In this document: positions 17,043-43,782 of the stretch, piece by piece | Layout: the number at the start of each line of letters is the position of its first letter | Position numbering within the stretch: position 1 is the stretch's first letter | Origin: Ruficoccus amylovorans | Lineage (GTDB): Bacteria > Verrucomicrobiota > Verrucomicrobiia > Opitutales > Cerasicoccaceae | DNA: 64,000 nucleotides | NCBI RefSeq assembly: GCF_014230085.1 | Contig: NZ_JACHVB010000012.1 | Location: 372,001-436,000, forward strand | Reading direction: 5' to 3' | The notes under the pieces: generated by a model | Told to the model about the DNA's origin: nothing | Database searches by the model: none | Seen by the model: only the letters and a program-made list of their open reading frames with translations | Program-made: the position numbers and the translations under genes

Positions 17043-17066
17043 ATTTGCGTAAATGTTTACGCAAAT
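17043..17066. promoter_or_regulatory. LacI-family operator O1
   Basis: Perfect inverted repeat with 11-bp arms (ATTTGCGTAAA and its complement) around a TG centre. It lies 45 bp upstream of the glycosidase ATG and overlaps the core promoter region after the TTGACG at 17029. Similar GTAAAC/GTTTAC cores recur in front of lacI, the oxidoreductase and the PEP-CTERM gene. Confidence 0.8.
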
Positions 17067-17111: not shown

Positions 17112-20100
17112 ATGCGTTCCTCCTTATTTTTTCGTGTCATTCGGGGTGTGTCAGGTTGTTCGATGCCGTTGCTACGGGTGGCGGTGATCGCCCTCATGGG
17201 CCTCGGATGGTATGAGGGGGCGTACGCCGCCGAGAGCCTGGAGGTGCGCAAGACCGGTGATGGGCAGGTGCAGGTTGTGATCGTGGCCCCGAAGGCGGAC
17301 GCGATACACACCCGCGTGATGCTGGATACCGACGAGAGCCGGGCCACGGGCTTTGGCGACGAAGGCGCAGACCTGATGATCGAGGGGGCGACCCTCTACG
17401 CCTATCCCAAGGGGGCGACGGGCTGGAACTGGGATTCGCTCGGTCCGGTGCCCAATGCGGTCGAAGGCGGTCGCCTCGTCTATACCTTGGCGCTGCCCGA
17501 GCAGCCGCGGATTTTGCGGCTTTTTGTGGAAAGCTTTAATGACAACTGGGAGGTCACGGACCGCTTTCCCGCGGAGGGCGCGGTCTCGGTGGACACCTCC
17601 CGCCTTGGATCGGTGCCGCAGGTCTCGGGCAGCGCTTCGCTGAGCGGTAACCTCTACCGCACGCCCACCGGAGGCCTGGCGGTGGCCGTCCTCGGGCAGG
17701 GGTTGGACCCCAATCGCCTCCGTGCCTTTATCAATACGGATGGCAACGCCTCAACCGGTCTGGCTCCCGCCGGGGCCGACTACATGATCGAGGGGCTTAC
17801 GCTCTACAAGCACACTGGTTCGGGCACGGGGTGGGACTGGACACCGCTCGGCCAACTCACCCCCGACATCAGGGAGGCGGGGGTCCTCTACCAGATCGAG
17901 GCTGTGGACTACGGGGATGTCATCGAGTACCGTATCGAAAAAACGGATACAAACTGGGAGGTGATCGACCGCTACCCCGGCACAGGGATGAAAAAAACGA
18001 AAAGGTCCGAACTCAAAGAATATTCTTACCAAGGGCCTGACCGACAAGTCGGGCCTAAAAATTATTCCCTCGACGAGTTGATGGCCTTTGCACCGTCTTC
18101 GCTGAACGCAGGATTTGACCGGCTCATGGACGGGCTGGACTGGACGTCGGCTCCGCTGGCCGCCCCGGCGTGGAAGGCGAAGGGCTTTGACGAGGCGTTG
18201 CCTCTGGTCTTTACGCTACAGGATGCCCAGACGGGGGCGACGGTTGCGCTGACGCCCGCCTCGCAGTCTGTATCGGGCGAGTGGACCCGGTGGGCAGGCG
18301 AGGCCGGGGGCGTGCACTGGAGCGTTTTTTCCCGTCTGGATGAAAACGCGGACATGGACATCTACACCCGCCTCAAAAGTTCCGGCGAACGGCTGCTTCG
18401 CCTCGGTGTCGGGGTAAAAATACCGGCGGCGGACTGGGTTTGGCATGACGATGTCGAGTATCGCGAGCCTGTCTCCAGCGGGCGCGCCGAGTACGCGCAC
18501 ACCGGCGCGAGCCCCTACGGGATGGATGGGGCGGTCTCGAAATACCCGCTCGGAGTCATTAGCGCGGATGACCGGGCGCTCGTGCTGGAGACCGACCTGA
18601 GCGAGCCGGTGGTTTTTAAAATATCCGCCCGCCCGGCGCAGGGTGTATTCGGAATTCACTACGATGTGGCGTTGACGCCGCTGACCCTGAAATTTCCCAA
18701 CGAAGCCGTCACACACCTGACTCTGCGCGCCCGCGATGTGCCCGAGCAGCAGGCGTTTCGTCAAGCTTTGGGGGAGCTTTACACGCGCAACCCTGCGCTG
18801 TTTGAGCGCCGTCCTGCCGAGGTCGGCTTGTGGATGCCATTTACCGATATTTCCAAAATCCGCGACCCGCAGGACTTCGGGTTCGCCTACTACGAAAAGG
18901 GCGGAGCCATCGGCGCTGACGTGGATTTCTGCCATGACAACGGCGTGCTCACCCTCGTCTATACCGAGCCGTGGCTGTACTGGCTGCCCATGCCGCAGGG
19001 GATGGAGCGCACGCCGCAGACAGCTCTGGCCCTGATGAAGCGGCTCGCTGCGGGGGGCACCGGAAAGGCGGCCGAATTCGCCTCGGGCGGACTACTGGGG
19101 GCGGCCCGTTCGCCGGAGGGTGACATTGTCATGACTTTTCAGGACGTGCCGTGGAATTCCGGTGGCCGCATGGAGGTGAGCACCGATCCCGAGCTTCCCA
19201 CTGCTCCGGGCGCGTCGGTCAACCGTGCCATGGCCGAGTTCGCCTTTATGCGTGAGCAGATGGACCACGAAAAAGTGGACGGCATCTACCTGGACTCGCT
19301 CAGCGCGATGTTCATCATGGACTACAATCCCGAGGCACTGGCCGTGGCCGACTATCCGGCGACATTCACTGCCGATGTGCTCAAGCCCGGGCTGGCGACG
19401 CCCATCGCAGCTTATGAATTTATCGCTGCGTTGGCCGGTTACGCCGAATCGAAGGGCAAGTACCTGATGGGCAATTTCCCGTGCTGGAATTTCCCCTTCT
19501 TCATGCCGCTGATCGACATCCCCGGCGAGGAGACGCACTGGTTCAGCAAGGGCCGCTACGAGCGCATGAGCGATCGCGATCTGAACTACCGCCGCGCCAT
19601 GTCCGGGCAGAAGGCGTGGGGCTTTCTCATGAACGGCGAGTACGACCATTTCGAGCCGCAGTTCGCCAGAAGCTATTTTGAGGACTGCCTCTTTTGGGCG
19701 TTTCAGCCGAGCCTCTTCAGTCACGACGCGGCCAACGATCCGTACTGGGAAAATGCGGAATGGTATGAGCGGGATCGTCCCTGGTTCCAACGCTACATGC
19801 CGTGGATTCAGCGACTGGCCGCGGTCGGCTGGCAGCCGACCGGGATCGCCAGCACGTCCGAGCCGGAGATCCAGGTCGAGCATTTTTATGGCGAAGGTGA
19901 GCCGGTTATTTTTATAACAGCGCGCAATTCGGGCGCGTCCACCGTCAGTTCCTACCTTGATGTCCAGCTCCCTCGCGACAGCGGCGAATGGCTGTGGACA
20001 AATCCGTTGGATGGCGAGGCGGGCTGGCTTTTCACCGATGCCGGTGGAGCGGGGACCGTTCCCGTCATGTTGGAGCCGGGGCAGGTCCGCGTGTTCGCGC

Positions 20101-21266
20101 TGGTGCCGGGCGGAGACATTGCGGCAGAGATCGGTTTTCTCGAAAACTGGCGGGACGGGGAGGGCGATGCCGCCCGCCTGATCAGTAAGCTGCGCTCGCT
20201 GCAAAAGGAGCAAAAGGCCGGTCTGCTGGTGGGGCTGGAAGCTTCGCCGCCGCTGCTGCGCGGAGTGGAGAATGAGCTTTGGCTGGAGATGAAAAACGCG
20301 TCCGCCTCACAGATCGAAGTCACCGCGCTCGCGCTCAAGCTGGCGGATGGCGGCGCGCTCAATTTATCGAAAACACCGCTCACGATTTCCGCAGGAAACT
20401 CCAGCGGGATGACGGTGGTTGTCCCGGCGGACTTTGAATGCAGCGACTTCGTGCTCGAAGCGACTTTTACCGTGAACGGTTCCAGTACGCCTCACACGCT
20501 GAGCCAGCCTTTCGCCTGGACGCTGCGCGATCCGGCTTCGGTCGTGCTGCTCGACAAACGCATTCTCTCGGTCCAGGAGGAGGCCAGCATCCCGCTGCGC
20601 GTGCGCAATCTGCTGGATGAACCCGCGCAGTTGCTCATCGAGTGGAGCGGCGATTATGGCAAGGGGCAGTCGGACATCTCCCTCGCCGCGAAGGAGGAGC
20701 GCAAGGTCTATCTGCCCGTCGTCTCCAACGGCAAGCCTCAGGGCAGCGTGAGCCTCCGGGCGCAGACGCGCGGACTGGATGTCTTTATGGCAGAAGTTGA
20801 GGTGACCTTTCTGGGCAAGCAGGCCAGTGTCGTGCGCGACAGCTCGGTCTCGGTCAGCACCAGTGGCGACTTCCCCGGCTACTCCGCGCAGGTCCTGCGC
20901 GACGGGGTAACCGCTGCTGCCGAGGGGATGGCCTTCAATGAAGCCGCTTGGGCCTCTGAGGACGCGCCTGGTGAGCGTTGGGTACGATTTGATTTTTCGG
21001 CTCCGCGCGAAGTCAGCGAGGTAAAAATCTACTGGAACCGGGAGGGCGGCGTGATCTACACCTCTCAGTCCGGCATCATCGAAGGCGTGCGCCCGGATGG
21101 TTCGGTCTATGAGCTGACGAGCTATTCACCCGAGCCGGAGTCAGAGGTTACGACGGTTTCCTTCGACCCGGCGAGCCTGGTCGGGCTTGTCGTGCGGCAG
21201 CCTGCGCGACAGGGACCGTCGGCGCGGCCCGACATTCTCTGGCTCAACGAGGTTGAAGTGCGCTGA
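17112..21266 (+). CDS. Large secreted glycoside-hydrolase-like protein with tandem N-terminal modules and C-terminal discoidin-like domain
   Basis: The roughly 1384-residue protein has an N-terminal signal ending near GWYEGAYA. Two homologous modules follow at about 40-155 and 170-300; each carries a DTD/NTDxxxxTGF motif and GADxMIEGxTLY. A long middle region (about 320-960) reads like a TIM-barrel glycosidase: VGLWMPFTDISKI, LVYTEPWLYWLP, VDGIYLDSLSAMF near 723 and KYLMGNFPCWNF. Beta-sandwich segments follow, and the last 140 residues form a discoidin-like domain ending RPDILWLNEVEVR. VDGIYLDS matches the acidic strand VDGFFLDT of the GH114-like enzyme at 25218. I know no named family for the whole chain. 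The start is uncertain: TTG 17091, ATG 17112 or ATG 17163. A LacI operator precedes it. Confidence 0.75.
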   Translation: MRSSLFFRVIRGVSGCSMPLLRVAVIALMGLGWYEGAYAAESLEVRKTGDGQVQVVIVAPKADAIHTRVMLDTDESRATGFGDEGADLMIEGATLYAYPKGATGWNWDSLGPVPNAVEGGRLVYTLALPEQPRILRLFVESFNDNWEVTDRFPAEGAVSVDTSRLGSVPQVSGSASLSGNLYRTPTGGLAVAVLGQGLDPNRLRAFINTDGNASTGLAPAGADYMIEGLTLYKHTGSGTGWDWTPLGQLTPDIREAGVLYQIEAVDYGDVIEYRIEKTDTNWEVIDRYPGTGMKKTKRSELKEYSYQGPDRQVGPKNYSLDELMAFAPSSLNAGFDRLMDGLDWTSAPLAAPAWKAKGFDEALPLVFTLQDAQTGATVALTPASQSVSGEWTRWAGEAGGVHWSVFSRLDENADMDIYTRLKSSGERLLRLGVGVKIPAADWVWHDDVEYREPVSSGRAEYAHTGASPYGMDGAVSKYPLGVISADDRALVLETDLSEPVVFKISARPAQGVFGIHYDVALTPLTLKFPNEAVTHLTLRARDVPEQQAFRQALGELYTRNPALFERRPAEVGLWMPFTDISKIRDPQDFGFAYYEKGGAIGADVDFCHDNGVLTLVYTEPWLYWLPMPQGMERTPQTALALMKRLAAGGTGKAAEFASGGLLGAARSPEGDIVMTFQDVPWNSGGRMEVSTDPELPTAPGASVNRAMAEFAFMREQMDHEKVDGIYLDSLSAMFIMDYNPEALAVADYPATFTADVLKPGLATPIAAYEFIAALAGYAESKGKYLMGNFPCWNFPFFMPLIDIPGEETHWFSKGRYERMSDRDLNYRRAMSGQKAWGFLMNGEYDHFEPQFARSYFEDCLFWAFQPSLFSHDAANDPYWENAEWYERDRPWFQRYMPWIQRLAAVGWQPTGIASTSEPEIQVEHFYGEGEPVIFITARNSGASTVSSYLDVQLPRDSGEWLWTNPLDGEAGWLFTDAGGAGTVPVMLEPGQVRVFALVPGGDIAAEIGFLENWRDGEGDAARLISKLRSLQKEQKAGLLVGLEASPPLLRGVENELWLEMKNASASQIEVTALALKLADGGALNLSKTPLTISAGNSSGMTVVVPADFECSDFVLEATFTVNGSSTPHTLSQPFAWTLRDPASVVLLDKRILSVQEEASIPLRVRNLLDEPAQLLIEWSGDYGKGQSDISLAAKEERKVYLPVVSNGKPQGSVSLRAQTRGLDVFMAEVEVTFLGKQASVVRDSSVSVSTSGDFPGYSAQVLRDGVTAAAEGMAFNEAAWASEDAPGERWVRFDFSAPREVSEVKIYWNREGGVIYTSQSGIIEGVRPDGSVYELTSYSPEPESEVTTVSFDPASLVGLVVRQPARQGPSARPDILWLNEVEVR

Positions 21267-21324
21267 GGGCGGTGCGTTCCGCCATGCACGCCATAAGTGG
21301 TCACGGCGATTTCGACCCGGTTTT

Positions 21325-21340
21325 GTGTAAACGTTTGTCC
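21325..21340. promoter_or_regulatory. LacI-family operator O2
   Basis: Near-palindrome GTGTAAAC/GTTTGTCC centred on CG at 21332-21333, 72 bp before the lacI start. It suggests autoregulation by the LacI protein and shares its core with O1, O3 and O4. Confidence 0.7.
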
Positions 21341-21412
21341 TTTACCTTTCCCGTGGGAGCGGGCACAGTGGGCATCGAGGCGTGAGTGTAATCACTTCCG
21401 CCCTGCGCAGTC

Positions 21413-22435
21413 ATGGACATTCGTGAGTTTTCAACTTTGGTAGGGGTATCGACGGCCACGGTTTCTCGGGCCTTTTCCGGACGCGGCCGCATCAGCAAAA
21501 AGACGCAGGAGCGCATCCTGCGCGAAGCGCACAAGCACGGCTTCAGTCCGAACATCAATGCGCGCCGCCTTTCGTCGAAACTCAGCGGTGTCATCGGCCT
21601 GTACTACACGTTCGGCGACGAGATCATCTTCGACTACTACAATATGGAACTGGCGCAGGAAATCGCCAAGACCTGCGCCGAGCACAGTGTATCCCTGCAC
21701 CTGGTTCTGCGCAGTCAGTCGCGCAAGGACTTGCAACTGAATCATCTGGTGGCGGGAAAGGGGCTGGACGGCGTCATCATCGTGACTGACAGCCTGCGTA
21801 GTCTGGAAGGGCTGGAGGATGTCATTCGCAAGTGCGCCACGGTGGTGATTTCCAACCAGATCTGGCCCGACAACCCGTCTCGCGGTTTTATTCATCTGGA
21901 CTTTGAAAGCGGCATCAATCAGGCGGTTTCTCACCTCGTCCGTCTTGGGCACCGGCGGATCGGGTTCATTCGCGGACAGACCGATGAGAGCAAATTTGAC
22001 GCCTACCGTCGCGCCCTTAAGCAAAACGGGATTCGCTTTGACAAGTCACTCGTCACTAAACCATCCAAGACGATACTGGATGGGCAGCAGGCTATTTCCG
22101 GGCTTTTAAAGGAAGGAATCACAGCGGTTATGTGCTGCACGGACTTGCTCGCTTTTGGGGCCTTGCAGGGGGCGCTCGGCCAGTCGGTGTCCGTGCCCGG
22201 CGATCTGTCCATTGTCGGGATGGATGACCTGGCGCTGAGCTCGCAGACGGTGCCTTCGCTTTCGAGTATCGGTGTCCCCAGGGCGCGTATTGCCGAGGGG
22301 GCGGTGAAGATGCTGGATCAATTGATTGATTCCTCAAACGGCGACAGACAGGACAGCGCTCAGTTTATGCATACCGTGAGCACTTTCCTGATCGAACGCG
22401 CTTCAATTGGGCCTGTCAAGATGGGCCGGGACTGA
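21413..22435 (+). CDS. LacI-family transcriptional regulator
   Basis: The 340-residue protein has an N-terminal LacI helix-turn-helix (MDIREFSTLVGVSTATVSRA, then SGRGRISKKTQERILREAHK) and hinge at about 50-60. A periplasmic-binding-protein-like sensor domain follows, with GLDGVIIVTDS, HLVRLGHRRIGFIRG and CCTDLLAFGALQGAL near 240, and DLSIVGMDDLAL before the C-terminal lobe. It should bind the four similar palindromes at 17043, 21325, 22541 and 23731 and release them on binding a sugar. It sits 146 bp after the glycosidase gene and is followed 162 bp later by an oxidoreductase gene. The ligand is not readable; an amino-sugar derivative is inferred from the locus. Confidence 0.94.
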   Translation: MDIREFSTLVGVSTATVSRAFSGRGRISKKTQERILREAHKHGFSPNINARRLSSKLSGVIGLYYTFGDEIIFDYYNMELAQEIAKTCAEHSVSLHLVLRSQSRKDLQLNHLVAGKGLDGVIIVTDSLRSLEGLEDVIRKCATVVISNQIWPDNPSRGFIHLDFESGINQAVSHLVRLGHRRIGFIRGQTDESKFDAYRRALKQNGIRFDKSLVTKPSKTILDGQQAISGLLKEGITAVMCCTDLLAFGALQGALGQSVSVPGDLSIVGMDDLALSSQTVPSLSSIGVPRARIAEGAVKMLDQLIDSSNGDRQDSAQFMHTVSTFLIERASIGPVKMGRD

Positions 22436-22540
22436 AAGCGGCAGCGGCGCAGCGCGCCTCTGTGTCGTCTGGTTTTGTGAGTATCTTTATTCTTATGGCT
22501 ACTCTCGTGTGTGAGGATATGGGGATTTTCTTATATGTGT

Positions 22541-22556
22541 GTGTAAACGGTTACGC
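22541..22556. promoter_or_regulatory. LacI-family operator O3
   Basis: Imperfect palindrome GTGTAAAC/GGTTACGC centred at 22548-22549. A TATAAG at 22572-22577 lies 23-24 bp from the centre and is a plausible -10 box for the oxidoreductase gene, so the operator would cover the -35 region. Confidence 0.7.
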
Positions 22557-22597
22557 TTTTTCTTGACTCGGTATAAGAAGGCTGATTGCATGGGCTC

Positions 22598-23716
22598 ATG
22601 AAAATCGGAGTGATTGGTATGGGCAAACGCCTGAGTCACATGGTCAATAACTGCATGCGCGAAGCGGATCCCGAGTTGAAGGTTGTCGCCGCGATTGATC
22701 CCGACGAGGAGGCAGTAAAAAAGGCACTGCCCGAAGAAGAGGCTGCTGCGGTCAAGTTCGTGGAGAACTGCGAAGGACTGATCGCCGCCGGTGTCGATGC
22801 GATTGCGATCGGGACACGCTGCAACCTGCACGCGCAGTACGCGGTCGAAGCGTCCAGGACAGGTTTGCCCCTGTTTCTGGAAAAACCGGTCGCGACGACG
22901 ATGGAGGATGCGCTTATGCTGGAAAAGGCGTTCCAGGACTCCCGCTCCGAGGTCGTGGTGAGCTTCCCGCTGCGGACATCGCCTCTTTGCGTGCGGGTCA
23001 AGGAGCTGCTGGAGGAGGGCGTGATCGGGATTCCGCAGCATGTATTGGCTGTCAACTACGTTCCCTATGGCGACGTTTATTTCAACTCCTGGTATCGAGA
23101 CTACGGCGTGACGGGTGGGCTCTTTTTGCAAAAGGCCACTCACGATTTCGACTACCTGGCGTACTGTCTGCGCAGCCCGATCGTGCGGGTCGCTGCCATG
23201 AAGTCGTGCGGCCGGGTCTATCGCGACTCCAGCCTGGCCGACGGTGAGCCGGACCCGGACTGCTATTACTATGACCAGGTTGGCACGGAAAAAACGGGCA
23301 TGAACGAGGATTCCTCCAGTGCGCTGATCGAGTTCGCGAACGGCACCCAGGCGCTTTACACGCAGGTGTTTTATTCCCGGCGCGGGGCAGCCGCCCGCGG
23401 GGCCACTTTCTCCGGACATCGGGGTACGCTGCGCTTCGACTGGTATGAGAACATGGCGAAGATCGTGCACCATCAGCGCCCGTTCGAGGACACGATCAAA
23501 GTGGACTGTGAGCTGAACCACCACGGTGGCGACGGCGTACTGGCTGAGAACTTTGTCAAGGTCGTGCGCGGTGAAGCCAGCTCGATCTCCAGTATCTGGG
23601 CCGGATTACAGAGCGTTTACGCCTGCCTCGCCGCCAAGCAGAGCGCCGAGACCCGGACGTTCTGCGAAGTGCGAAATATTGATCAATTTAAACCAGCCGA
23701 GGCTGGTATGGCATGA
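22598..23716 (+). CDS. Gfo/Idh/MocA-family oxidoreductase
   Basis: This 372-residue cytoplasmic protein has an N-terminal Rossmann fold with MKIGVIGMGKRLSHM for NAD(P) binding and the family motif LFLEKPV near residue 95. The C-terminal alpha/beta substrate domain includes GVTGGLFLQKATHDFDYLAY near 180, with the catalytic-type His-Asp. Members oxidise, reduce or epimerise sugars and inositols, and some open glycosidic bonds by redox catalysis. I chose the ATG at 22598; a TTG at 22586 would add four residues. LacI operator O3 lies 42 bp upstream, so it belongs to the same regulon as the secreted glycosidases. The substrate is unknown. Confidence 0.9.
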   Translation: MKIGVIGMGKRLSHMVNNCMREADPELKVVAAIDPDEEAVKKALPEEEAAAVKFVENCEGLIAAGVDAIAIGTRCNLHAQYAVEASRTGLPLFLEKPVATTMEDALMLEKAFQDSRSEVVVSFPLRTSPLCVRVKELLEEGVIGIPQHVLAVNYVPYGDVYFNSWYRDYGVTGGLFLQKATHDFDYLAYCLRSPIVRVAAMKSCGRVYRDSSLADGEPDPDCYYYDQVGTEKTGMNEDSSSALIEFANGTQALYTQVFYSRRGAAARGATFSGHRGTLRFDWYENMAKIVHHQRPFEDTIKVDCELNHHGGDGVLAENFVKVVRGEASSISSIWAGLQSVYACLAAKQSAETRTFCEVRNIDQFKPAEAGMA

Positions 23717-23730
23717 AAACTGCAATGAGA

Positions 23731-23746
23731 GTGAAACCGTTTACGC
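23731..23746. promoter_or_regulatory. LacI-family operator O4
   Basis: Palindrome GTGAAACC/GTTTACGC centred at 23738-23739. TATAAA at 23761-23766 lies 22-23 bp from the centre, the same geometry as O3. It should control the 23840-28640 run of genes. Confidence 0.75.
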
Positions 23747-23839
23747 AACTAATGAAGCTGTATAAAAACTAACCAATCGGGAGCTTCAGACGGTTGTCCA
23801 TTATTTCCCTGAAACTCAAACGACCAACCATTACAGATT

Positions 23840-24523
23840 ATGACAAAAATCCACACAGGTATCAAATTGTTCGCCGGACTCCTGGGAGTACTCGGGTTCT
23901 GCGCCACCGTCCATGCCGGGACGTACAAGACGATCACAATTGACGGGGATTTTTCCGACTGGGACGACGTGCCCGTCTTGACGACAGAGACACCCATGGC
24001 CGCCGGGCCGGTGCAGTTCGCTTCGATGTCCGTCGCCAATGACGGGGAGAAGCTCTACCTGCGGGTGGTGTACACCGCCGAGGTGGCCGTGAACTTCGGA
24101 GGTACCAACATCTATATCGGCATCGACACGGACAACGACCCTAGCACTGGGTTTAATGTGTACGGGTTGGGGATCGTCGGAGCGGAAGTCGCCTGGGAAA
24201 ATGACTTCCCGTTCCAGCAGGATAATGATGTCTGGAATACCGGTGTAACCGTCACCGATGGCGGAGCGGCCATCTCGCCCTACGCGACCACCACGATCCA
24301 GCAGGAGCTCTCCATCAGCCTGTCGGCGACCTACGCCAATGACGGCAGCGCGGTCTTTCCGGACGACACGATCGCCATCGTCTTTTACACAACGACCTCC
24401 GAGGCCAGCCTCCTGGGCAAGGGCGTTTATACGTTTGCCATCCCCGAGCCTGGCCACTATGCGATGGGAGTATCGGCGCTGGCAGTTGGTGTTCTGCTGG
24501 TCTTCCGCCGCCGCCGCAAGTAG
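23840..24523 (+). CDS. PEP-CTERM surface protein with CBM9/DOMON-like sandwich
   Basis: The 227-residue protein has a signal peptide ending TVHA and a C-terminal PEP-CTERM sorting tail: IPEP, a hydrophobic helix, then RRRRK. It is therefore processed by an exosortase and sent to the surface or exopolysaccharide layer. The body starts ITIDGDFSDWDDVPV, as in CBM9-like and related sugar-binding sandwiches, and contains IGIDTDNDPSTGF near residue 95. That motif resembles the tandem modules of the glycosidase at 17112. It may capture the polymer that the two secreted enzymes cut. It is first in a run of four same-strand genes with gaps of 16-36 bp, led by LacI operator O4. Confidence 0.85.
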   Translation: MTKIHTGIKLFAGLLGVLGFCATVHAGTYKTITIDGDFSDWDDVPVLTTETPMAAGPVQFASMSVANDGEKLYLRVVYTAEVAVNFGGTNIYIGIDTDNDPSTGFNVYGLGIVGAEVAWENDFPFQQDNDVWNTGVTVTDGGAAISPYATTTIQQELSISLSATYANDGSAVFPDDTIAIVFYTTTSEASLLGKGVYTFAIPEPGHYAMGVSALAVGVLLVFRRRRK

Positions 24524-24559
24524 TCCGTTCTTTACCGGGTCGTTAAACACTCACGGGTC

Positions 24560-25201
24560 ATGCTGATGAAAAGACAGAGCGGGTTTAGCCTGATCGAACT
24601 TCTGGTCGTCATCGCCGTGGTCGGGATACTTTCGAGTATCCTGATCACGGGGGTGAACCACGTGAGAAACAAAAGCAGCCAGATGAAAAGCGCTGCCAAT
24701 GTCCGCAGCATCGGCGGGGCCTTGCATATGTACTCGCAGGAGAGCGACGGCAACCTCCCGGTCTGGCATGACTACACGGTCGGCAAATACTGGTGGCAAC
24801 TGCTGCGGCCCTACGTCAACGACGACGACGAGGTCTTTCACAGCCCGGCGCACGAGGAGTTTGACGCGACCAATGACACGACGATTGCGCAGACGATTTC
24901 CTACGGCTGGAACTTCGCGGTCGTGGGGCGGCATATCGGCGATAAGTCCTACAGTGGGGACTTCGTGCAACCGGTGTTCCTGTTTGATAATCCAGGCAAG
25001 ACGCTCGTATTAACAGACGGCCCGCGCTACGACTCGTGGGGCTACATCACCATCCTGCACCCGGCCGACCCCGACCGATACGGTGACGGTAAGGCGATCG
25101 GGCTCTTTCTGGACGGGCATATCGAGATCCGCGAGCAGGTGGACTTCACCATCGAAGATCCGTACTTTATCCCCGAGGAGGCCATGCCCTCCATGAAATA
25201 A
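24560..25201 (+). CDS. Prepilin-type N-terminal cleavage/methylation domain protein (pseudopilin-like)
   Basis: The N-terminus MKRQSGFSLIELLVVIAVVG is a class III prepilin signal: cleavage after Gly, Phe+1 and Glu+5. The 213-residue protein then shows HMYSQESDGNLPVW and a C-terminal LFLDGHIEIREQ. This layout is typical of the large families of type II secretion-like pseudopilins found in Verrucomicrobiota and Planctomycetota. It needs a PilD-type peptidase encoded elsewhere. It lies between the PEP-CTERM and GH114-like genes in the LacI-controlled run, so it may form a dedicated secretion or binding appendage for polymer use. ATG codons at 24560 and 24566 are both possible. Confidence 0.88.
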   Translation: MLMKRQSGFSLIELLVVIAVVGILSSILITGVNHVRNKSSQMKSAANVRSIGGALHMYSQESDGNLPVWHDYTVGKYWWQLLRPYVNDDDEVFHSPAHEEFDATNDTTIAQTISYGWNFAVVGRHIGDKSYSGDFVQPVFLFDNPGKTLVLTDGPRYDSWGYITILHPADPDRYGDGKAIGLFLDGHIEIREQVDFTIEDPYFIPEEAMPSMK

Positions 25202-25217
25202 AAAACACCTAACAGTG

Positions 25218-26621
25218 ATGATTCTACTTTCTCGCTATTTCGCCGGCGCGGTGCTGGCGGCCACGATTTCCCATGCCTGCGGGGCGGATGTCTCCGGCGC
25301 ACGGGACGCTTTCAGGAAAATCGATTCCTACGCCTGCTACTACGGCGAGGGCAAGCTGGACGAACTGCGCACCCGCGACGCGGTCGTCATCGAAACCAGG
25401 AACCAGAGCCTGGAAAACATCCATCGCCTGCAGGAGGGCGGCACGCTCGTCATCGGCTACATCAGCATCGGCGAGGACGACGACCTGCGCGTGGGCGACG
25501 GCAAGGGGCCGGGGGGCAAGGACTCCTCGTACTTCGACCGCGACGGTGACGGCCAGCCGGACCGCAACGGCATCTGGGACTCGTACTACGCGGACTCGCG
25601 GCAGCCTGCCTGGCGCGAGCATTTTATGAAAAACATCGCCCGGATGAAGGCCGTGCACCACGTGGACGGCTTCTTTCTGGACACGGTCGATACGAGCGAG
25701 CTGTACCCCGAGTCCGAGGAGGCGATGGTCTCGCTCATCCGCGAACTGCGTAGCGCCTACCCGGACAGCCTGATCGTGCTCAACCGCGGCTTCCACACGG
25801 TCGAGGCGCTGGCCCCGGTCATTGACGGGGTGATGTTCGAGAGTTTTACCGCCAGCTACGACTGGCCCAGCAGCAGCTACCTTTTACTGACGCCGTCGTC
25901 GTGGGACTACGGGCTGGAGGTTTGGCAGGAGGCGCTGAAACCGGCGATGGACAACTACGGCGTGGTTGTGCTCGCGCTGGACTATGCCCCGTCCGCCGAC
26001 TCCGAACTGGTGAAAACGGCGATGGACCGTGCCGCGACATTCGGCTTTATCCCGGAGGTTTCGACCATCTACCTGGACGATATTTACGAGATCGACTACC
26101 AGCCGCAGAAAAACCCGGATTACCTGACTGTACAGTGTACGCCCGAGCGTTTGGCCTACGAGCTGACCGAGGCGGCCAACGGCTTTCCGGCGGGCACGCG
26201 CGTTATGCCCAGTTCGTCCTATCCCGACTACGAGGTCAAGGCCGTGGTCGATGGTGTCGCCGACAAGGACACGCTCGGCTGGCGTCACCGTGCGTGGGCT
26301 TCTCAGGAGACGGACGAGGACCACTGGCTGGAGTTTATCCTGCCGCAGCCGATACGGGCGGACGGGCTCGCCATCGACTGGGCCTGGGACAACGGAACGG
26401 CGTACGCGGCGCGGAATTTCCGGATCGAGGTCAAGCCACAGGAGAGCGAGGATTGGGTTCTGGTGAGCGAGTACTCCGAGAATGAACAGGCGCGCAACGC
26501 AGTCCGCTTCGCCCCGGTGAAGGTGGCCGCCGTGCGTGTGGTGCAGGAGGAGGGTGGCGGCTCGACCGGACGCCCCGACCTGATGTGGGTGGAGAAGGTC
26601 GCCCTCTCGGCCGTCAATTAA
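25218..26621 (+). CDS. Secreted GH114-like glycosidase (endo-alpha-1,4-polygalactosaminidase family) with C-terminal discoidin-like domain
   Basis: A signal peptide (MILLSRYFAGAVLAATISHA) is followed by a TIM-barrel domain at about 30-290 that resembles GH114/TM1410-type proteins: RTRDAVVIETRN, LVIGYISIGEDDDLRVG, GIWDSYYADS, VDGFFLDTVDT near 150 and VEALAPVIDGVMFESF. Characterised GH114 enzymes cut alpha-1,4-linked galactosamine polymers. The last 140 residues (from about 325, SSSYPDYEVKAVVDGVAD to RPDLMWVEKVAL) match the C-terminal domain of the large glycosidase at 17112. GTG 25215 or ATG 25218 can start it. It sits 16 bp after the pseudopilin gene and 27 bp before the transporter. The fold is confident; the polymer specificity is inferred. 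Confidence 0.82.
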   Translation: MILLSRYFAGAVLAATISHACGADVSGARDAFRKIDSYACYYGEGKLDELRTRDAVVIETRNQSLENIHRLQEGGTLVIGYISIGEDDDLRVGDGKGPGGKDSSYFDRDGDGQPDRNGIWDSYYADSRQPAWREHFMKNIARMKAVHHVDGFFLDTVDTSELYPESEEAMVSLIRELRSAYPDSLIVLNRGFHTVEALAPVIDGVMFESFTASYDWPSSSYLLLTPSSWDYGLEVWQEALKPAMDNYGVVVLALDYAPSADSELVKTAMDRAATFGFIPEVSTIYLDDIYEIDYQPQKNPDYLTVQCTPERLAYELTEAANGFPAGTRVMPSSSYPDYEVKAVVDGVADKDTLGWRHRAWASQETDEDHWLEFILPQPIRADGLAIDWAWDNGTAYAARNFRIEVKPQESEDWVLVSEYSENEQARNAVRFAPVKVAAVRVVQEEGGGSTGRPDLMWVEKVALSAVN

Positions 26622-26648
26622 CGTACCCCGAACCGACCGGATAAAAAA

Positions 26649-28640: not shown

Positions 28641-28764
28641 CCCCGGAGGGGCGACGTTATTTCAAGCCCGGACTGGTAAAAGAAAACGGGTGCCAGCTAA
28701 GGGCGACGCGGCACGCATCGAAAGTGCAGGCTATGCCTCCAGCAAGAACTCAGCTGACGGAACA

Positions 28765-29598
28765 CTAGCTGAGCGTGGCGATGGCGTCCATCATCAGCGT
28801 GTCGCTACGCTCAAGAATATCCCGCATGAACGCGTCCAGCGCGAGCGGAGCATCACCGGCGATGAGCGGTGTCATGTCGAGCGCGTACTGGATGCGGTTG
28901 GCGTCGTCGATGCTGTGCGCGTCGAGGAAGGTGGCGTTGGCGGTGCGGCGGCCTTCGACCGCGAGGTCGTAGCGTTTGCCGCCGGCTATCTGCGAGTCAA
29001 AGACACCGTTGAGCGCGGCGGCGAGATTCGGGTGTCCGCTGACATCTTGCAGGACTTTGATGTCGTCCGGCAGCCAGTCCAGCCCGCGCCAGACCTCGCA
29101 ACCGTAGATGCGGGCCGGGCGCTCGGAGACGGGAAGCTCGCGGATCGCCTCCAGCACGGCGAGCATGACGCCCAGATGGGTCGGGTGCTTGTCAAAGGCA
29201 TTATGGGTATAGACCACCTCGGGACGGGCCGTGGCAAAGAGGTCGCGCAACTCGCGCACGAGCGCGGCGCGGGGGGCGGGCGTTTTTACCGCGGAGCTGG
29301 GATACCCGAGCTGCGCCATAAACGCGTACTGGCCGATGCTGGCGGCGGTTTCCTGCTCGGTCACGCGCACGGCCTGCATCTGCTCGTCGGTGAAATCCGC
29401 GTAGGCTCCCGTCCGGGCGCTGCCCGCGCCGTCGGTGCAGGTCACCGCGCCGAACCACTTGTCCGCGCGCTGGAAGCATTCGAGGATGCCGTGCAGGGCC
29501 ATGAATTCGAGGTCGTCCTGGTGCGCACCGACACCGAGGTGGGTGGTGCGCACCAGGGCGCTTGTTTGCTCGCTCTGATCGGGAATAAAAAGTTTCAT
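28765..29598 (-). CDS. PIG-L family deacetylase
   Basis: The 277-residue cytoplasmic protein belongs to the LmbE/PIG-L zinc hydrolases that remove acetyl from N-acetylated sugars. Its zinc site is intact: GAHQDDLEFMALHG near residue 24 (His-x-Asp-Asp) and FDKHPTHLGV near 148 (His-x-x-His). The Asp-Gly-Ala-Gly-Ser stretch following strand 2 is also typical. It is the third gene of a minus-strand operon nagB-like, ROK, PIG-L, with 39 bp to the ROK gene. It probably deacetylates an imported N-acetylhexosamine before phosphorylation and deamination. The alternative is removal of an unrelated N-acyl group. Confidence 0.9.
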   Translation of the reverse strand: MKLFIPDQSEQTSALVRTTHLGVGAHQDDLEFMALHGILECFQRADKWFGAVTCTDGAGSARTGAYADFTDEQMQAVRVTEQETAASIGQYAFMAQLGYPSSAVKTPAPRAALVRELRDLFATARPEVVYTHNAFDKHPTHLGVMLAVLEAIRELPVSERPARIYGCEVWRGLDWLPDDIKVLQDVSGHPNLAAALNGVFDSQIAGGKRYDLAVEGRRTANATFLDAHSIDDANRIQYALDMTPLIAGDAPLALDAFMRDILERSDTLMMDAIATLS

Positions 29599-29637
29599 GG
29601 GGAAAAATGCGCTTGAGGTTGTCGGGATCTCTGCTGG

Positions 29638-31053
29638 TTACAGTCTGGTTGAGGCGGACTGCTTGTCCAGTACCGGAAGCGAAGCGGCCGCGACGGCCTG
29701 GCCGTGGCGCTTCATGGTCTCGTCGGGCAGGGTGATGCTGATGGTTGGCGCGAGCGAGGGGAACTCGTCGCCGAGCACATCCTCGGCCTGCTCGCGGATG
29801 ATCTGGCCGCCTTCGCCCGAGCTGACGCGCCCGAGGAAAAGCAGGTGCCGGAACCGGTAAAAGTCCGCGTAATGCGCCAGCGCGTAGCCGAGGCAGGTAC
29901 CGATGGTGCGGTAGATGGCGGCGGCCCGCTGGTCGCCACGCTCCATGTGGCTCTGAACGGCTTCGAGCTGCTCGGCCATAGGCATTTCCGCCGGGACCGG
30001 GAGCCCCGAGGCCGGGAGCAGGCGGGAGACCGCCTGTTGGGAGAAATACTGCACGCCGCAGCCACGGTCGCCGCTCCACTCGTCGCGGGGGGAGTCCTGT
30101 TCGCGGTAGTCCACCGGCGCGAAGGCCAGCTCGTTAAGCCAGCCGGTGACGGCTCCGGCTCCGTTGACATAGCCGACAGCCTGGCTCGTGCCCATGGAGA
30201 GTCCGAGCACCTCGGAGACACCGAGCACGTGCGCCCCGGCCAGCGCGGTGACATCGCCGTCGTTGGCCACGACAAAGGGGACGTTTTCCCACTTGCGTTT
30301 GAGTTCGTGAAAGAGCGGACGGATCTTCGCCTCGAAGTCGCCGGCACTGACGCCGCGAAAGAGCGAGGCCACGCGGGGCTCGTTGTCGATGTAAATGCCC
30401 GCCGCGCTGCCGCCGATGGCATCGACGCGGGGCAGGTGGGCGGCGGCGCGCTCCAGGCTGTCCTGAATGCCCGCGATGTGGTACTCGGGGTCGCTCTCGA
30501 AGTAGGGCGACCACTTGATTTCCTCCGAGTAAACCACCTCGCCGTCGATGAGCGCGGCGCACTTGCGGTCGCTTCCGCCGAGGTCGAAGCCGATCCGGCA
30601 ACCGTCAATATTGCGTTTGGCCGGGGCGGGTTCGCCGCTGTCGGCGCACTCCGGCGCGAGCGTGTCGTGGACGGAGAAGGGTTGGAGAAAAACGCGCTGC
30701 CCCATGAACTCCCAGTCAAAGGCGCGTTCGCCTTCGGGGCTGTAAATGGTTTTCAGTTTGGCGGCGATTTCGGGCGCGCCGCTGAGGCGGACTTCGCAGC
30801 CGCCCCAGGCCCAGAGCATCATTTTGACCAGCCGCTCGCAGTAGCGCAGGTTGTAGCCCGCGTAGGCGAGGTTGGCCGGGAGCAGGCGGGTGCGGTAGGT
30901 GTTGGCCTGCCCGTCGGGGCGCACCACCTGGAGCGTGACTTCACGGGCGTCGGGGCAGAGGTAGGCCAGATCGCGATAGTGCTGGTTCCACAGCGAGGCC
31001 GGGATGAAGCCCGGATCGAGTTCGGGCGTGTGCAGGAGCTTGAGTTCAAACAT
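29638..31053 (-). CDS. ROK-family sugar kinase with about 140-residue N-terminal extension
   Basis: The 471-residue protein has an ASKHA-fold kinase core from about residue 145. It shows IGFDLGGSDRKCAALIDGE as the phosphate-1 loop, GGSAAGIYIDNEPRV, VANDGDVTALAGA carrying the catalytic-type Asp, and LSMGTSQAVGYVNGAG. The usual ROK zinc signature CxCGxxGCxE is absent; SGDRGCGVQYFS stands in its place. The first 140 residues are unlike standard ROK kinases and contain VRPDGQANTYRTRLLP. It is flanked by the nagB-like gene (30 bp) and the PIG-L gene (39 bp) in one operon. It likely phosphorylates a free hexosamine. A regulator or pseudokinase role cannot be excluded. Confidence 0.82.
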   Translation of the reverse strand: MFELKLLHTPELDPGFIPASLWNQHYRDLAYLCPDAREVTLQVVRPDGQANTYRTRLLPANLAYAGYNLRYCERLVKMMLWAWGGCEVRLSGAPEIAAKLKTIYSPEGERAFDWEFMGQRVFLQPFSVHDTLAPECADSGEPAPAKRNIDGCRIGFDLGGSDRKCAALIDGEVVYSEEIKWSPYFESDPEYHIAGIQDSLERAAAHLPRVDAIGGSAAGIYIDNEPRVASLFRGVSAGDFEAKIRPLFHELKRKWENVPFVVANDGDVTALAGAHVLGVSEVLGLSMGTSQAVGYVNGAGAVTGWLNELAFAPVDYREQDSPRDEWSGDRGCGVQYFSQQAVSRLLPASGLPVPAEMPMAEQLEAVQSHMERGDQRAAAIYRTIGTCLGYALAHYADFYRFRHLLFLGRVSSGEGGQIIREQAEDVLGDEFPSLAPTISITLPDETMKRHGQAVAAASLPVLDKQSASTRL

Positions 31054-31083
31054 GGTGTCGGTTCCTCGGATGGGGTTGCGGGG

Positions 31084-32979
31084 TTACAGCGGCCAGCGTT
31101 TGAAGGCCTCAATGGCCTCATACTCGGGCAGGCCGAGGGCATCGTAAGTGCGTGCCGTGCCGTGGTTGAGTTCGGCGGCGACATCCCAGCTGTTGCCGTC
31201 GCTCTTTTTGCCTAGGCCGGGCGACTGGCTGCGCTGAGACTGCTGCTGGTAAATGCCCTGCATCTTGTTTTCAAACTCCGAGGGCGAGAGCGGCACGGCC
31301 ATGTCGATTTCGTGGGTTTCCCACTCGTTGCCGGGGCCGCGATAGAGCCAGACGCGGCAGTCGCGCAACCACTCTTCGTCCTTGAACGAGGCCAGTGCCT
31401 CGTTGAGGATGCCGAAGCACAGGGCGGGGACCGAGAGCGGATCGTAGCGGTAGCCTGTGGCGAAAATCTGGTGCGGGCGGATTTCGAGCAGAAGCTCGCG
31501 CATGCGGGCGATGTCGGCCTCGCCCGGCTTGAAACGCCGGTAGCGCCCCTCCTCGTAGAAGGGCAGGTCGAGGAAGCGCAGGCTGGCCGGGGACAGCCCG
31601 AGGATACGAGCCGAGGAGTTGACTTCGCCCCGGCGCACGAGGCCCTTGAGGTGGCGGATGTCGGCGCTGTCGAGGTCGAACTTGCCCTTGGCCTCAAGCT
31701 CGCGCATGACCTGCGCGGCGTAGGCGGTCGAGGGCTGCTCGGGGTAATCCCGCTGCATGCCCATCATCCACTCCAGCATGCGTCGAAGTTCGTCGTCGGG
31801 CACGGCGAGGTTGCCCGAGGTCAGGTAAGCGACCGTGACTTCGTGCCCCTGATTGGCCAGCCGGTGCAGGGTGCCGCCCATCGAGCTGACGTCGTCCAGC
31901 GGCTCCGGGCTGAGCACAAGCACCCGCTTGGGGTGGGGCAGGGCGCGTTCAGGCCGGTGCGAGTCGTCGGCGTTGGGCTTGCCGCCGGGCCAGCCGGTGA
32001 TGGTGTGCTGGGTGAGGTTGAAAAGCTCGATGTTGAGATTGTAGGAACCCTTTTCAGTCAGCAGGTCGGACATGCCGTTTTCAGAGTAGTCCTCGTCCAC
32101 GAGTTTCAGCAGCGGCTTTTTAACCTGCAAGGCGAGCCAGGTGATGGCCTTGCGAATGAGGGCGGGGGTCCACTCGACCGGACCGACGAGCCAGGGGTAG
32201 CGGATGCGGGTCAGATGGCTGGCCGCCGCCGCGTCCAGGCAAAAGGTACAGGCCTTGTGGCGCTGGAGGAAGCTCGCGGGTACGGCGAGGCGCTGTTCGC
32301 CCTCGACCGTTTCGGCCACGATGGTGGCCTTGGATTCACCCCAGGCGAGGAGGAAAATTTGACGGGCTTCGAGGATGGAGCCGACACCCATCGTGATGGC
32401 GTGGCGGGGGACGTTCTCCTCGCCGAGAAAGTCGCGGGCCGCGTCGCGGCGGGTCAGCGCGTCGAGGGTGACGAGCCGGGTGCGGCTCTCCGGGCCGGAG
32501 CCTGGCTCGTTGAAACCGATGTGGCCGGTGCGTCCGATGCCGAGGATCTGGATGTCGATGCCCCCAACTTGTGCGATGGCGTCTTCATAGGACTGGCAGG
32601 CGTCGAAGACCTGTTCGCGGGCGGCTGTGCCGTCGGGGACGTGGGTATTGGCCGGGTCGATGTCGATGTGATCGAAGAGCTGCTCCTGCATGAAGCGCCG
32701 GTAGCTCTCGGGGTGGGAGCCGTCGAGGCCGTAGTACTCGTCGAGGTTGAAGGTGACGGCGTGCGCGAAGCTCAGCCCCTCCTCGCGGTGACGGCGGATC
32801 AACTCGCGGTAAAGCCGCACCGGGGTCGATCCGGTGGCCAGCCCGAGGACGGCGGGGCGGCCTTCCTGCTGGCGGGTGCGCAGGAGTTTATCGATGGCGT
32901 CGGCTACATGGGCGCAGGCCTGGTCCGCGCCCGGGTAGATCCGGGTGGAAATATGCTCACGTTGGGCGAACTCGTTCAT
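31084..32979 (-). CDS. nagB: Glucosamine-6-phosphate deaminase fused to degenerate PIG-L domain
   Basis: The 631-residue protein has an N-terminal NagB domain (about 10-290) with LGLATGSTPVRLYRELI, VTFNLDEYYGL and LGIGRTGHIGFNEPGS. These are the phosphate-binding, catalytic and lid elements that convert glucosamine-6-phosphate to fructose-6-phosphate and ammonia. Residues about 345-600 align with the PIG-L domain seen in long Bacteroidetes-type NagB fusions. Here the zinc motif HPDD reads EPLD (SPEPLDDVSSMGG, near 358), and the second His pair region reads DPLSVPAL near 514, so the deacetylase site is lost. It is first in the operon with ROK and PIG-L, whose separate PIG-L enzyme has an intact site. 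The divergent AraC gene starts 85 bp away. Confidence 0.92.
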   Translation of the reverse strand: MNEFAQREHISTRIYPGADQACAHVADAIDKLLRTRQQEGRPAVLGLATGSTPVRLYRELIRRHREEGLSFAHAVTFNLDEYYGLDGSHPESYRRFMQEQLFDHIDIDPANTHVPDGTAAREQVFDACQSYEDAIAQVGGIDIQILGIGRTGHIGFNEPGSGPESRTRLVTLDALTRRDAARDFLGEENVPRHAITMGVGSILEARQIFLLAWGESKATIVAETVEGEQRLAVPASFLQRHKACTFCLDAAAASHLTRIRYPWLVGPVEWTPALIRKAITWLALQVKKPLLKLVDEDYSENGMSDLLTEKGSYNLNIELFNLTQHTITGWPGGKPNADDSHRPERALPHPKRVLVLSPEPLDDVSSMGGTLHRLANQGHEVTVAYLTSGNLAVPDDELRRMLEWMMGMQRDYPEQPSTAYAAQVMRELEAKGKFDLDSADIRHLKGLVRRGEVNSSARILGLSPASLRFLDLPFYEEGRYRRFKPGEADIARMRELLLEIRPHQIFATGYRYDPLSVPALCFGILNEALASFKDEEWLRDCRVWLYRGPGNEWETHEIDMAVPLSPSEFENKMQGIYQQQSQRSQSPGLGKKSDGNSWDVAAELNHGTARTYDALGLPEYEAIEAFKRWPL

Positions 32980-33064
32980 AATGGGTTTTCTTGCCCACCA
33001 TCATAGCGTAAATAAATGGCTAAAACATTGCATTGTTCGGCAATTTTTTGATGATTTCGGAAAT

Positions 33065-35219: not shown

Positions 35220-35268
35220 TGGGTGGAGGTGTAGTTTTTTTTAAATACGCAAGGAGCGCGCCCGGCGC

Positions 35269-36294: not shown

Positions 36295-36435
36295 AGATAT
36301 TTGAATTTAGTTTTTATGGATATTAATTAATTCAGGAAAAGCGATGCCCGGTCCCGCCGTTGCGTCGGCCGGAAGTGGAAAGAGGGGAGAGGTGTTTTTT
36401 TAACAGGGCGTCCGTGCCCCGGTATTGTTTAAAAC

Positions 36436-37506: not shown

Positions 37507-37593
37507 GCCGCCCACTCAAGCTTCTCCGGCCCAACTTGTCAAATACATTAATTTACAAAAACAAAAACGTTAATTTGTTTGTACATTCAAGAA

Positions 37594-39744: not shown

Positions 39745-39844
39745 GACGCCGGTACGAAGGACCAAGCCCCGGCCCGAGTAAGGGGTGGGGTGCGCTTTGC
39801 CCTTGCCCATAAGGGAAAGCCGCTTACGTTCGGCCTTTTTACTT

Positions 39845-41329: not shown

Positions 41330-41470
41330 CCGCGCCCGCCCGGCGCGTGGCCAGTTGCCCTGAAAATATTCCTGGCCCGCACTGCTTGGCCCACTTTGGC
41401 GGATTTGCGCATCTTCGCGTGACTTCGCGGGAAACTTCCTTTATTCACTCTTACCTCAACCCACATTCCG

Positions 41471-41911
41471 ATGGACGACCTCGTAAAAACCATTCCCCAC
41501 CGTCCGCCGTTCCTCTTCATCGACGAGGTGACGGAACTGCGCGAGGACGGTATCAGCGCCCGCCGCACCTTGCGCGCGGACGAGTTCTATTTCGCCGGGC
41601 ACTACCCCGGTAACCCGATCATGCCCGGCGTGCTTTTGTGTGAATCGGCTTTTCAGGCCGCTGCCGTCTATCTGGTCAAGAAGATGGAAGGCGAGGGCAC
41701 CGACATGGAGGGGCGCACGCCGATCCTCTCGCGCATCGGCGACGCCAAGTTCAAAAACATCGTCCGCCCCGGTGAGACCTTCACCATCGATGTCACCTAC
41801 ACCAAGACGCTGGCCGACTTCCACTTCCTCAAGGCGGTGGTGCGGCGCGGTGACGGCAAGGTCGCCGTTGCGCTCGATTTCGTCCTGGCCATGATCGCTG
41901 CCGAGGTATGA
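41471..41911 (+). CDS. fabZ: 3-hydroxyacyl-ACP dehydratase, FabZ family
   Basis: This 146-residue hot-dog protein dehydrates 3-hydroxyacyl-ACP in fatty-acid elongation. It starts with the FabZ block [16 protein letters not shown] and has the catalytic His in [16 protein letters not shown] with the acidic partner Glu in [30 protein letters not shown] matches the C-terminal sheet. Its stop overlaps the fabI start by four bases (ATGA), so the two are translationally coupled. It may be the housekeeping FabZ or a copy dedicated to the oleA pathway. Confidence 0.92.
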
Positions 41912-42711: not shown

Positions 42712-42715
42712 GCCG

Positions 42716-43753: not shown

Positions 43754-43782
43754 CGTGCCCCTAAAAAAAGCCCGTTCACCGC

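What the first reader, a model, noticed from the sequence alone, without database searches (positions are those of the whole stretch)
17112..32979. Candidate pathway for use of an amino-sugar polymer, from surface capture to fructose-6-phosphate
Two secreted glycosidase-like proteins (one GH114-like), a PEP-CTERM binding-type protein, a pseudopilin and a Na+ symporter sit next to a divergent operon of PIG-L deacetylase, ROK-family kinase and NagB. GH114 enzymes are known to cut alpha-1,4-galactosamine polymers, while PIG-L, ROK and NagB form a known type of N-acetylhexosamine route. The combination suggests a system for a galactosamine- or glucosamine-rich exopolysaccharide. This link is inferred: the two halves have different regulators.
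Basis: partly seen in the sequence, partly recalled or inferred. Interest (0 to 1): 0.85.

Follow-up and report, generated by a model that had tools for sequence, protein, structure and literature searches.

The report
Predicted galactosamine-polymer feeding gene cluster
A group of bacterial genes that probably lets the cell cut up and eat a galactosamine-rich slime polymer lies beside a more common gene set for digesting amino sugars; the genes are real and several lines of evidence suggest the diet, but the two sets are usually apart in relatives.

Summary
The genes are there, with corrections: seven same-strand genes (17112-28640: large glycosidase-like protein, LacI, Gfo/Idh/MocA, PEP-CTERM protein, pseudopilin, GH114-like enzyme, SSS symporter) meet, tail to tail, an operon of PIG-L, ROK-like kinase and a NagB-PIG-L fusion (28765-32979). 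The amino-sugar reading still gains independent support. In five relatives one palindromic operator stands before the large glycosidase gene and again between the gfo-led operon and a divergent N-acetylhexosamine 1-kinase/nucleotidyltransferase/epimerase module; that module joins the Nag operon in other families. The enzyme's nearest solved relative is the PelA hydrolase domain, with both catalytic residues. On two Deinococcus plasmids its relatives head operons shaped like galactosamine catabolism. The window genome shows no such kinase, AgaS or PelG, so the route to fructose-6-phosphate is plausible but incomplete (no galacto-to-gluco step shown). New variant of a known kind. The large protein's central domain has no Pfam or PDB relative.

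The parts
17044..17065 (.). 22-bp palindrome TTTGCGTAAATGTTTACGCAAA, predicted operator of the neighbouring LacI-family regulator
   Evidence: Only match at <=3 mismatches in the window, 0 in 100 shuffles; like sites before the 1384-aa gene in G002-G006 and G057
17112..21266 (+). gh1384: 1384-aa secreted glycosidase-like protein: two related N-terminal modules, a central domain of unknown family, C-terminal F5/8-type domain
   Evidence: Sequence; F5/8 weak in Pfam; modules related at 99.8% by hhalign; no PDB relative of the central domain
21413..22435 (+). LacI-family regulator
   Evidence: Pfam LacI and Peripla_BP_3 over cut-off; 70-71% identical to the LacI beside gh1384 in G002-G004
22598..23716 (+). 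Gfo/Idh/MocA oxidoreductase (start taken at the first ATG)
   Evidence: Pfam
23840..24523 (+). PEP-CTERM-type secreted protein, role unknown
   Evidence: Sequence; conserved place in six relatives; no Pfam family
24560..25201 (+). Pseudopilin-like protein
   Evidence: N_methyl over cut-off; TIGR02532 over cut-off
25215..26621 (+). GH114/GH166-like endo-galactosaminidase candidate with C-terminal F5/8 domain; D156 and E209 match PaPelA D160 and E218
   Evidence: Pfam Glyco_hydro_114 45 bits; PelA E 1e-19 alone, 3e-24 as profile; residue mapping is mine from the alignment, PelA residues from passages of PMC12022489
26649..28640 (+). SSS sodium:solute symporter
   Evidence: Pfam SSF over cut-off; 60-80% identical in the six syntenic blocks
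28765..29598 (-). Stand-alone PIG-L (LmbE-like) de-N-acetylase candidate with AHQDD and HPTH motifs
   Evidence: Pfam; alignment of 11 orthologues
29638..31053 (-). ROK-like sugar kinase candidate with an N-terminal extension of about 150 aa
   Evidence: Pfam ROK under cut-off; no PDB relative at E<=1
31084..32979 (-). NagB-type glucosamine-6-phosphate deaminase fused to a degenerate PIG-L domain
   Evidence: NF002557 828 bits; nagB TIGR00502 255 bits over cut-off; changed motifs
32981..33940 (+). AraC-family regulator divergent from the Nag operon (exact start uncertain)
   Evidence: Pfam

Best explanation
The GH half is a LacI-controlled operon for feeding on an alpha-1,4-linked galactosamine/N-acetylgalactosamine polymer of the Pel or galactosaminogalactan type. 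The secreted GH114/GH166-like enzyme cuts the chain, its F5/8 domain and the modules of the 1384-aa protein hold the substrate, the 1384-aa protein trims the pieces, and the SSS symporter imports the product. In most relatives the same operator also drives a kinase/nucleotidyltransferase/epimerase module that could turn N-acetylhexosamine into UDP-sugars (GalNAc to GlcNAc). The window genome has lost or never had that module. Here the neighbouring general amino-sugar operon (PIG-L deacetylation, ROK phosphorylation, NagB deamination to fructose-6-phosphate) is the best candidate for the inner steps. Shown: gene content, synteny, operator sharing, conserved catalytic residues. Inferred: substrate, import step, role of the 1384-aa protein, and that the Nag operon takes over the products.
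For: PelA as nearest solved relative, with both catalytic residues. gh1384 occurs in 7 of 196 genomes of the order, and these include all 6 with the full-length GH114-like enzyme. Kinase module beside the GH block in G002-G006 and G057; its kinase in G002 matches N-acetylhexosamine 1-kinase at E 2e-82. Operator: 14 hits at <=3 mismatches in 234 kb of 10 GH-block loci (13 distinct sites; one lies in two overlapping loci), 0 in 265 kb of 14 Nag-operon loci, 0 in 236 kb of 35 other loci, mononucleotide shuffles of the first set 0.1. Two Deinococcus plasmids carry DeoR, GH114-like gene, ABC importer, BadF kinase, SIS protein, class II aldolase and PfkB kinase in one run (families of the four enzymes scanned for one of the two). 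In other families the Nag operon joins the kinase module; GH20 or PL8 genes lie beside it in 4 of 11 loci whose neighbours I scanned. Halves adjoin in the window and in G057.
Against: Halves apart in 4 of 6 genomes. No operator at the Nag half. No NahK match in the window genome and no AgaS over cut-off in any of 9 genomes, so GalNAc has no demonstrated way into the NagB route. GH half lower in G+C (0.606) than the Nag half (0.654; window 0.619). The three other genomes of the genus searched lack the GH half. The central domain of gh1384 occurs in 40 of 387 genomes of the phylum and only 4 of these have a GH114-like barrel in the same sample, so that family is not tied to GH114 in general. A GH114 gene of Zobellia responds to agar and its authors suspect another specificity (passage of PMC5613140). 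The tree ties the enzyme neither to the Deinococcus nor to the PelA forms. 7 of 11 Nag-operon neighbourhoods scanned show no GH20 or PL8 gene.
Confidence: 0.52

Rival explanations
1. The two halves are neighbours by rearrangement. The GH half feeds on a galactosamine polymer by steps elsewhere in the genome, and the Nag operon serves other amino-sugar sources (chitin, peptidoglycan, glycosaminoglycans) under its AraC regulator.
For: Apart in 4 of 6 genomes; ROK gene in 59 of 196 genomes with strong matches, 53 of them without the full-length GH114-like enzyme; different regulators and G+C; in G009 the genes that flank the 30-kb segment (PYC and carbonic anhydrase) lie 2.1 kb apart and the ROK gene is on another contig.
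Against: Adjacent also in G057, another family, with the same end of the Nag operon facing the GH half; all 6 GH114 genomes carry the ROK gene against 59 of 196 overall (not corrected for descent).
Confidence: 0.4
2. The secreted enzymes act on a different, neutral polysaccharide.
For: Pfam GH114 is a broad group; a Zobellia GH114 gene is agar-responsive (passage of PMC5613140); profile search gives weak matches to a GH66 dextranase and an endo-1,3-fucanase (E 0.02); the central domain of the 1384-aa protein has no characterised relative.
Against: The PelA match is far stronger (E 3e-24) and covers the barrel; the co-regulated kinase in relatives is of the N-acetylhexosamine type.
Confidence: 0.15
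3. The GH114/GH166-like enzyme trims the cell's own Pel-like exopolysaccharide, as PelA does, and is not for feeding.
For: Closest solved relative is PelA; the partial relatives in G002, G145 and G429 lie within about 11 kb of a PelG gene; three of five plasmid relatives opened look like polymer synthesis loci.
Against: PelG was found in none of the 7 genomes with the GH block or gh1384 except G002, where it is on another contig than the block; the block has a symporter, LacI and a second glycosidase-like protein instead of pel genes; a kinase module shares the operator in relatives.
Confidence: 0.08

Closest known systems
PelA hydrolase domain (GH166) and GH114/GH191 endo-galactosaminidases
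   Same: Barrel sequence, catalytic Asp and Glu, likely alpha-1,4-galactosamine chemistry
   Different: No deacetylase domain and no pel genes; carries an F5/8 domain and sits with transporter and regulator
Bifidobacterial GNB/LNB pathway (NahK, uridylyltransferase, UDP-hexose 4-epimerase)
   Same: The relatives' module has the same three enzyme types
   Different: Linked to a GH114-like enzyme; module absent from the window genome; the pathway's phosphorylase was not searched for
aga pathway for N-acetylgalactosamine / galactosamine (recalled, and passages of PMC5583593)
   Same: Aim; the Deinococcus GH114-like operons look like it
   Different: Window genome and relatives lack AgaS (0 of 9 over cut-off)
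NagB-PIG-L fusion proteins of Bacteroidota (PRK02122/NF002557)
   Same: Full-length family match, 47-51% identity to four plasmid-borne homologues
   Different: PIG-L half has lost its motif histidines here; a separate PIG-L gene with intact motifs follows

Membership tests
GH114 (Pfam PF03537) | Match over the curated cut-off | tested here: met
   45.1 bits against 27
GH166 (PelA hydrolase) | Sequence kinship to PelA and catalytic Asp/Glu pair | tested here: met
   E 1e-19 and 3e-24; D156/E209 in all 6 orthologues aligned
GH166 (PelA hydrolase) | Formal CAZy assignment / place in a tree with reference members | tested here: inconclusive
   Tree without fungal GH114 or GH191 references; no supported branch to the PelA forms
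GH114/GH166 | Activity on galactosamine polymer | not testable with these tools
   Needs enzyme assay
NF002557 NagB-PIG-L | Full-length match over cut-off | tested here: met
   828.5 bits against 384
NF002557 NagB-PIG-L | Intact PIG-L motifs, as in 4 of 4 Bacteroidota homologues examined (not a formal criterion of the family) | tested here: not met
   SPEP..DD and DPLSVP replace SPHPDDD and DPHGTH
GNB/LNB-type hexosamine salvage | NahK kinase in the genome | tested here: not met
   0 matches in the window genome; present in G002-G006 and G057
aga pathway | AgaS | tested here: not met
   0 of 9 genomes over cut-off; window genome without any match
Nag pathway | NagA deacetylase | tested here: inconclusive
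   0 of 10 genomes over cut-off; window genome has one NagA-like hit at 168 bits against 226
Sus-type PUL | SusC/SusD pair | tested here: not met
   No such Pfam match among the 20 ORFs scanned between 10339 and 39090
pel biosynthesis locus | PelG | tested here: not met
   No match in the window genome

The most novel reading that the evidence does not exclude
A dedicated feeding system for Pel/galactosaminogalactan-type polymers, known as biofilm matrix rather than as food: a LacI regulon that couples a GH166-like endo-enzyme and a new exo-acting glycosidase family (the 1384-aa protein) to N-acetylhexosamine 1-kinase salvage in most relatives, and to a deacetylase/kinase/deaminase operon in the window genome, where the kinase module is gone.
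Probability: 0.3. Interest if true: 0.75.

Novelty: new variant of a known kind. Interest (0 to 1): 0.55.

Why it matters
Galactosamine polymers are matrix components of bacterial and fungal biofilms, and few enzymes against them have been characterised (abstract and passages of PMC12054363). A regulated feeding cluster would say who recycles these polymers, give matched enzymes for breaking them, and bring in an uncharacterised glycosidase-like family whose central domain is found in 40 of 387 genomes of the phylum.

Tried and rejected
Structure of the 1384-aa protein's central domain: folded from the window sequence alone, mean pLDDT 36.5, unusable, so no fold search was made.

Profile search for the same domain with 24 members: no PDB match up to E 10, no Pfam family shared by more than 1 of the 24, no link to the GH114 barrel (hhalign probability 0.2%). 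My early idea that it is a barrel related to GH114 is not supported.

PEP-CTERM protein as a relative of the N-terminal modules: unproven (the E-values of the hmmsearch part of that call refer to sets of 2 and 7 sequences).

The stand-alone PIG-L profile (11 rows) matched no PDB chain at E<=0.001 and the ROK protein none at E<=1. The genome-contig scan gave one distant locus.

Literature. Read as passages only: PMC12054363 (also outline), PMC12022489, PMC5583593, PMC8857213, PMC9177762, PMC5613140. Searches: among the rows listed (2 of 2, 13 of 13, 12 of 16, 15 of 27, 15 of 496, 15 of 16, 0, 1 of 1, 1 of 1) I saw no paper on a GH114/GH166 enzyme in a feeding locus with NahK or a Nag operon. 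The lists are partly capped and the library is open access only, so this is weak evidence of absence.

Counts with dropped rows. One search used 61 strong ROK rows (59 genomes; one search has 62 genomes at E<=0.001, weak rows left out) and the first 60 NahK rows (50 of the 61 genomes, weaker rows left out). One search left out L067 and L068; one search shows there, besides sites already counted, one further 3-mismatch site each, near an uncharacterised 776-811-aa protein upstream of gh1384 in G004 and G002 (no Pfam family). (<=4 mismatches) also shows one 4-mismatch site in a Nag locus (L051). The 41 genomes include one (G526) with the F5/8 part only, hence 40.

Full report
What is there. The window lies at G000:C12:372001-436000. 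Between 17112 and 28640 seven genes follow one another on the + strand with gaps of 13-162 bp: the 1384-aa secreted protein, LacI, Gfo/Idh/MocA, PEP-CTERM protein, pseudopilin, GH114-like enzyme, SSS symporter. From 28765 to 32979 three genes lie on the - strand: PIG-L, ROK-like kinase, NagB-PIG-L fusion, with AraC divergent from them. The two runs are tail to tail, 124 bp apart. The finding called the Nag operon divergent; relative to the GH half it is convergent.

The GH114-like enzyme. Pfam GH114 scores 45 bits. Among solved structures only PelA matches strongly (E 1e-19; E 3e-24 as a six-row profile; next best E 0.02, a GH66 dextranase and an endo-1,3-fucanase). D156 and E209 fall on the PelA motifs that I take to hold D160 and E218: the spacing fits, 53 residues plus a 5-residue insertion in PelA against 58. 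The PelA residues come from passages of PMC12022489; passages of PMC12054363 describe an Asp nucleophile and Glu acid/base in these families. Both are invariant in the 6 orthologues aligned. Its F5/8 domain is related to that of the 1384-aa protein (hhalign 98.7%), which suggests a shared target.

The 1384-aa protein. It has two related N-terminal modules (hhalign 99.8%) that also occur in front of the GH114-like enzymes of G006 and, weakly, G057 (tiny search sets). Its central domain has no PDB relative and no shared Pfam family. It is found in 40 of 387 genomes of the phylum, and only 4 of those have a GH114-like barrel in the same sample. It is called glycosidase-like here by architecture and company only.

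Do the halves belong together? In 196 genomes of the order the full-length GH114-like enzyme is in 6 (G000, G002, G003, G004, G006, G057; 8 have any match) and the ROK kinase in 62 at E<=0.001, 59 with strong matches. All 6 have both. I use the ROK gene as a stand-in for the Nag operon: of 15 ROK loci of other genomes that I opened, 13 hold NagB, ROK and PIG-L together; in L065 I saw no PIG-L and in L069 no NagB. The halves adjoin in G000 and in G057 (another family), and lie on different contigs in G002, G003 and G004 or about 270 kb apart in G006. Against that, two close pairs of 6 are more than random placement would give (about 0.001, ignoring descent), and in both the PIG-L end of the Nag operon faces the GH half. 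The sister genome with a 93% identical PYC gene (G009) has PYC and the carbonic anhydrase gene 2.1 kb apart where the window has 30 kb between them, so both halves lie in one segment that differs between the two; the direction of that change is not known. The three other genomes of the genus searched lack the GH half.

A third module explains more. In G002, G003, G004 and G005 a kinase gene, with nucleotidyltransferase and 4-epimerase-like genes beside it where I read the DNA (G002, G005), lies divergent from the gfo gene inside the block; G006 and G057 have all three beside the block. The kinase of G002 matches N-acetylhexosamine 1-kinase (PDB 4ocj, E 2e-82); such kinases act on GlcNAc and GalNAc alike (abstract of PMC6264712 in the listing). 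Of 36 genomes with both kinase and ROK gene in my counted rows, 13 have the two within 15 kb, one of them with a distant ROK paralogue; in G118 and G028 they form one run: NagB, ROK, PIG-L, nucleotidyltransferase, NahK, epimerase. GH20 genes lie near the Nag genes in G009 and G095 and PL8 lyase genes in G043 and G098, 4 of 11 loci whose neighbours I scanned in part; the other 7 show GH2, GH38, a sulfatase, an esterase, housekeeping or unassigned genes. So the Nag operon looks like a general amino-sugar hub, and the GH half is tied to amino sugars by its own module in the relatives. The window genome shows no NahK.

Regulation. The palindrome TTTGCGTAAATGTTTACGCAAA lies at 17044-17065, before the 1384-aa gene. 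It is the only match at up to 3 mismatches in the window (0 in 100 shuffles). Like sites (0-2 mismatches) stand before that gene in G002-G006 and G057, and weaker copies (2-3 mismatches) between the kinase and gfo genes in G002-G006, taking gene starts from homology. None at up to 3 mismatches in 265 kb of 14 Nag-operon loci or in 236 kb of 35 other loci; one 4-mismatch site in L051. G057 shows none between its kinase module and gfo. Kinase module and GH half are thus probably one regulon in five relatives; the Nag half is not in it.

Outside the phylum. Of 22 plasmid records with a match, the best two are Deinococcus genes (32% and 33% identity) that stand near the start of operons with an ABC sugar importer, BadF-type kinase, SIS protein, class II aldolase and PfkB kinase. 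For one of them NCBIfam places these four near NagK, GlmD (AgaS next), fructose/tagatose-bisphosphate aldolase and hexose kinase, all under the curated cut-offs. Three further records opened look like polymer synthesis: pelF nearby, PelD nearby, a deacetylase fusion beside a TPR protein. So the enzyme group serves both uses, and company decides. The window genome shows no PelG, whereas the partial relatives in G002, G145 and G429 lie within about 11 kb of one. In print, a Zobellia GH114 gene is agar-responsive and its authors suspect another specificity (passage of PMC5613140).

The Nag half. NagB scores over the nagB cut-off. The fused PIG-L half has lost the histidines of both motifs in all 11 orthologues aligned, while 4 of 4 Bacteroidota homologues keep them; the separate PIG-L keeps them in 11 of 11. 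That these are the metal ligands is recalled. In G118 and G028 NagB is unfused (247 and 246 aa). A transfer of the deacetylase step from the fused domain to the separate gene is a fair reading. NagA: one sub-threshold relative in the window genome. AgaS: none over cut-off in 9 genomes.

Most likely working, and how sure. Feeding on an amino-sugar polymer: likely. Alpha-1,4-galactosamine type: slightly more likely than not. Products passing through the Nag half in this genome: about even odds, since the galacto-to-gluco step is missing and the regulators differ.

Noticed in passing
window 31084-32979 and loci L033, L035, L040-L045, L050, L051: The PIG-L domain of the NagB fusion has lost its motif histidines in 11 of 11 orthologues of the order aligned but keeps them in 4 of 4 Bacteroidota homologues; a separate PIG-L gene with intact motifs follows.
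   Followed up: partly
window 18219-20111 and loci L074-L095: Central domain of the 1384-aa protein is an uncharacterised family in 40 of 387 genomes of the phylum, without Pfam or PDB relatives.
   Followed up: partly
L122, L123: Deinococcus plasmid operons with a GH114-like enzyme that look like galactosamine catabolism.
   Followed up: partly
window 16.7-47.1 kb: 30-kb segment between PYC and a carbonic anhydrase gene; in G009 these genes are 2.1 kb apart.
   Followed up: partly
L068 8259-10694, L067 2158-4488: Uncharacterised 811/776-aa protein upstream of gh1384 in G002 and G004 with a short match to the gh1384 N-terminal module and a 3-mismatch operator near its start; no Pfam family for the G002 copy.
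   Followed up: no
window 34368-37515: Separate sugar-type gene group: AP-endonuclease-2-type TIM barrel, second Gfo/Idh/MocA, GntR-type regulator with sugar-binding domain.
   Followed up: no
G002:C3, G145:C3, G429:C1: Probable pel loci: PelG near a GH114-like domain.
   Followed up: no
window 39785-44658: Amine oxidase, short-chain dehydrogenase, ketoacyl-ACP synthase III and alpha/beta hydrolase in a row.
   Followed up: no
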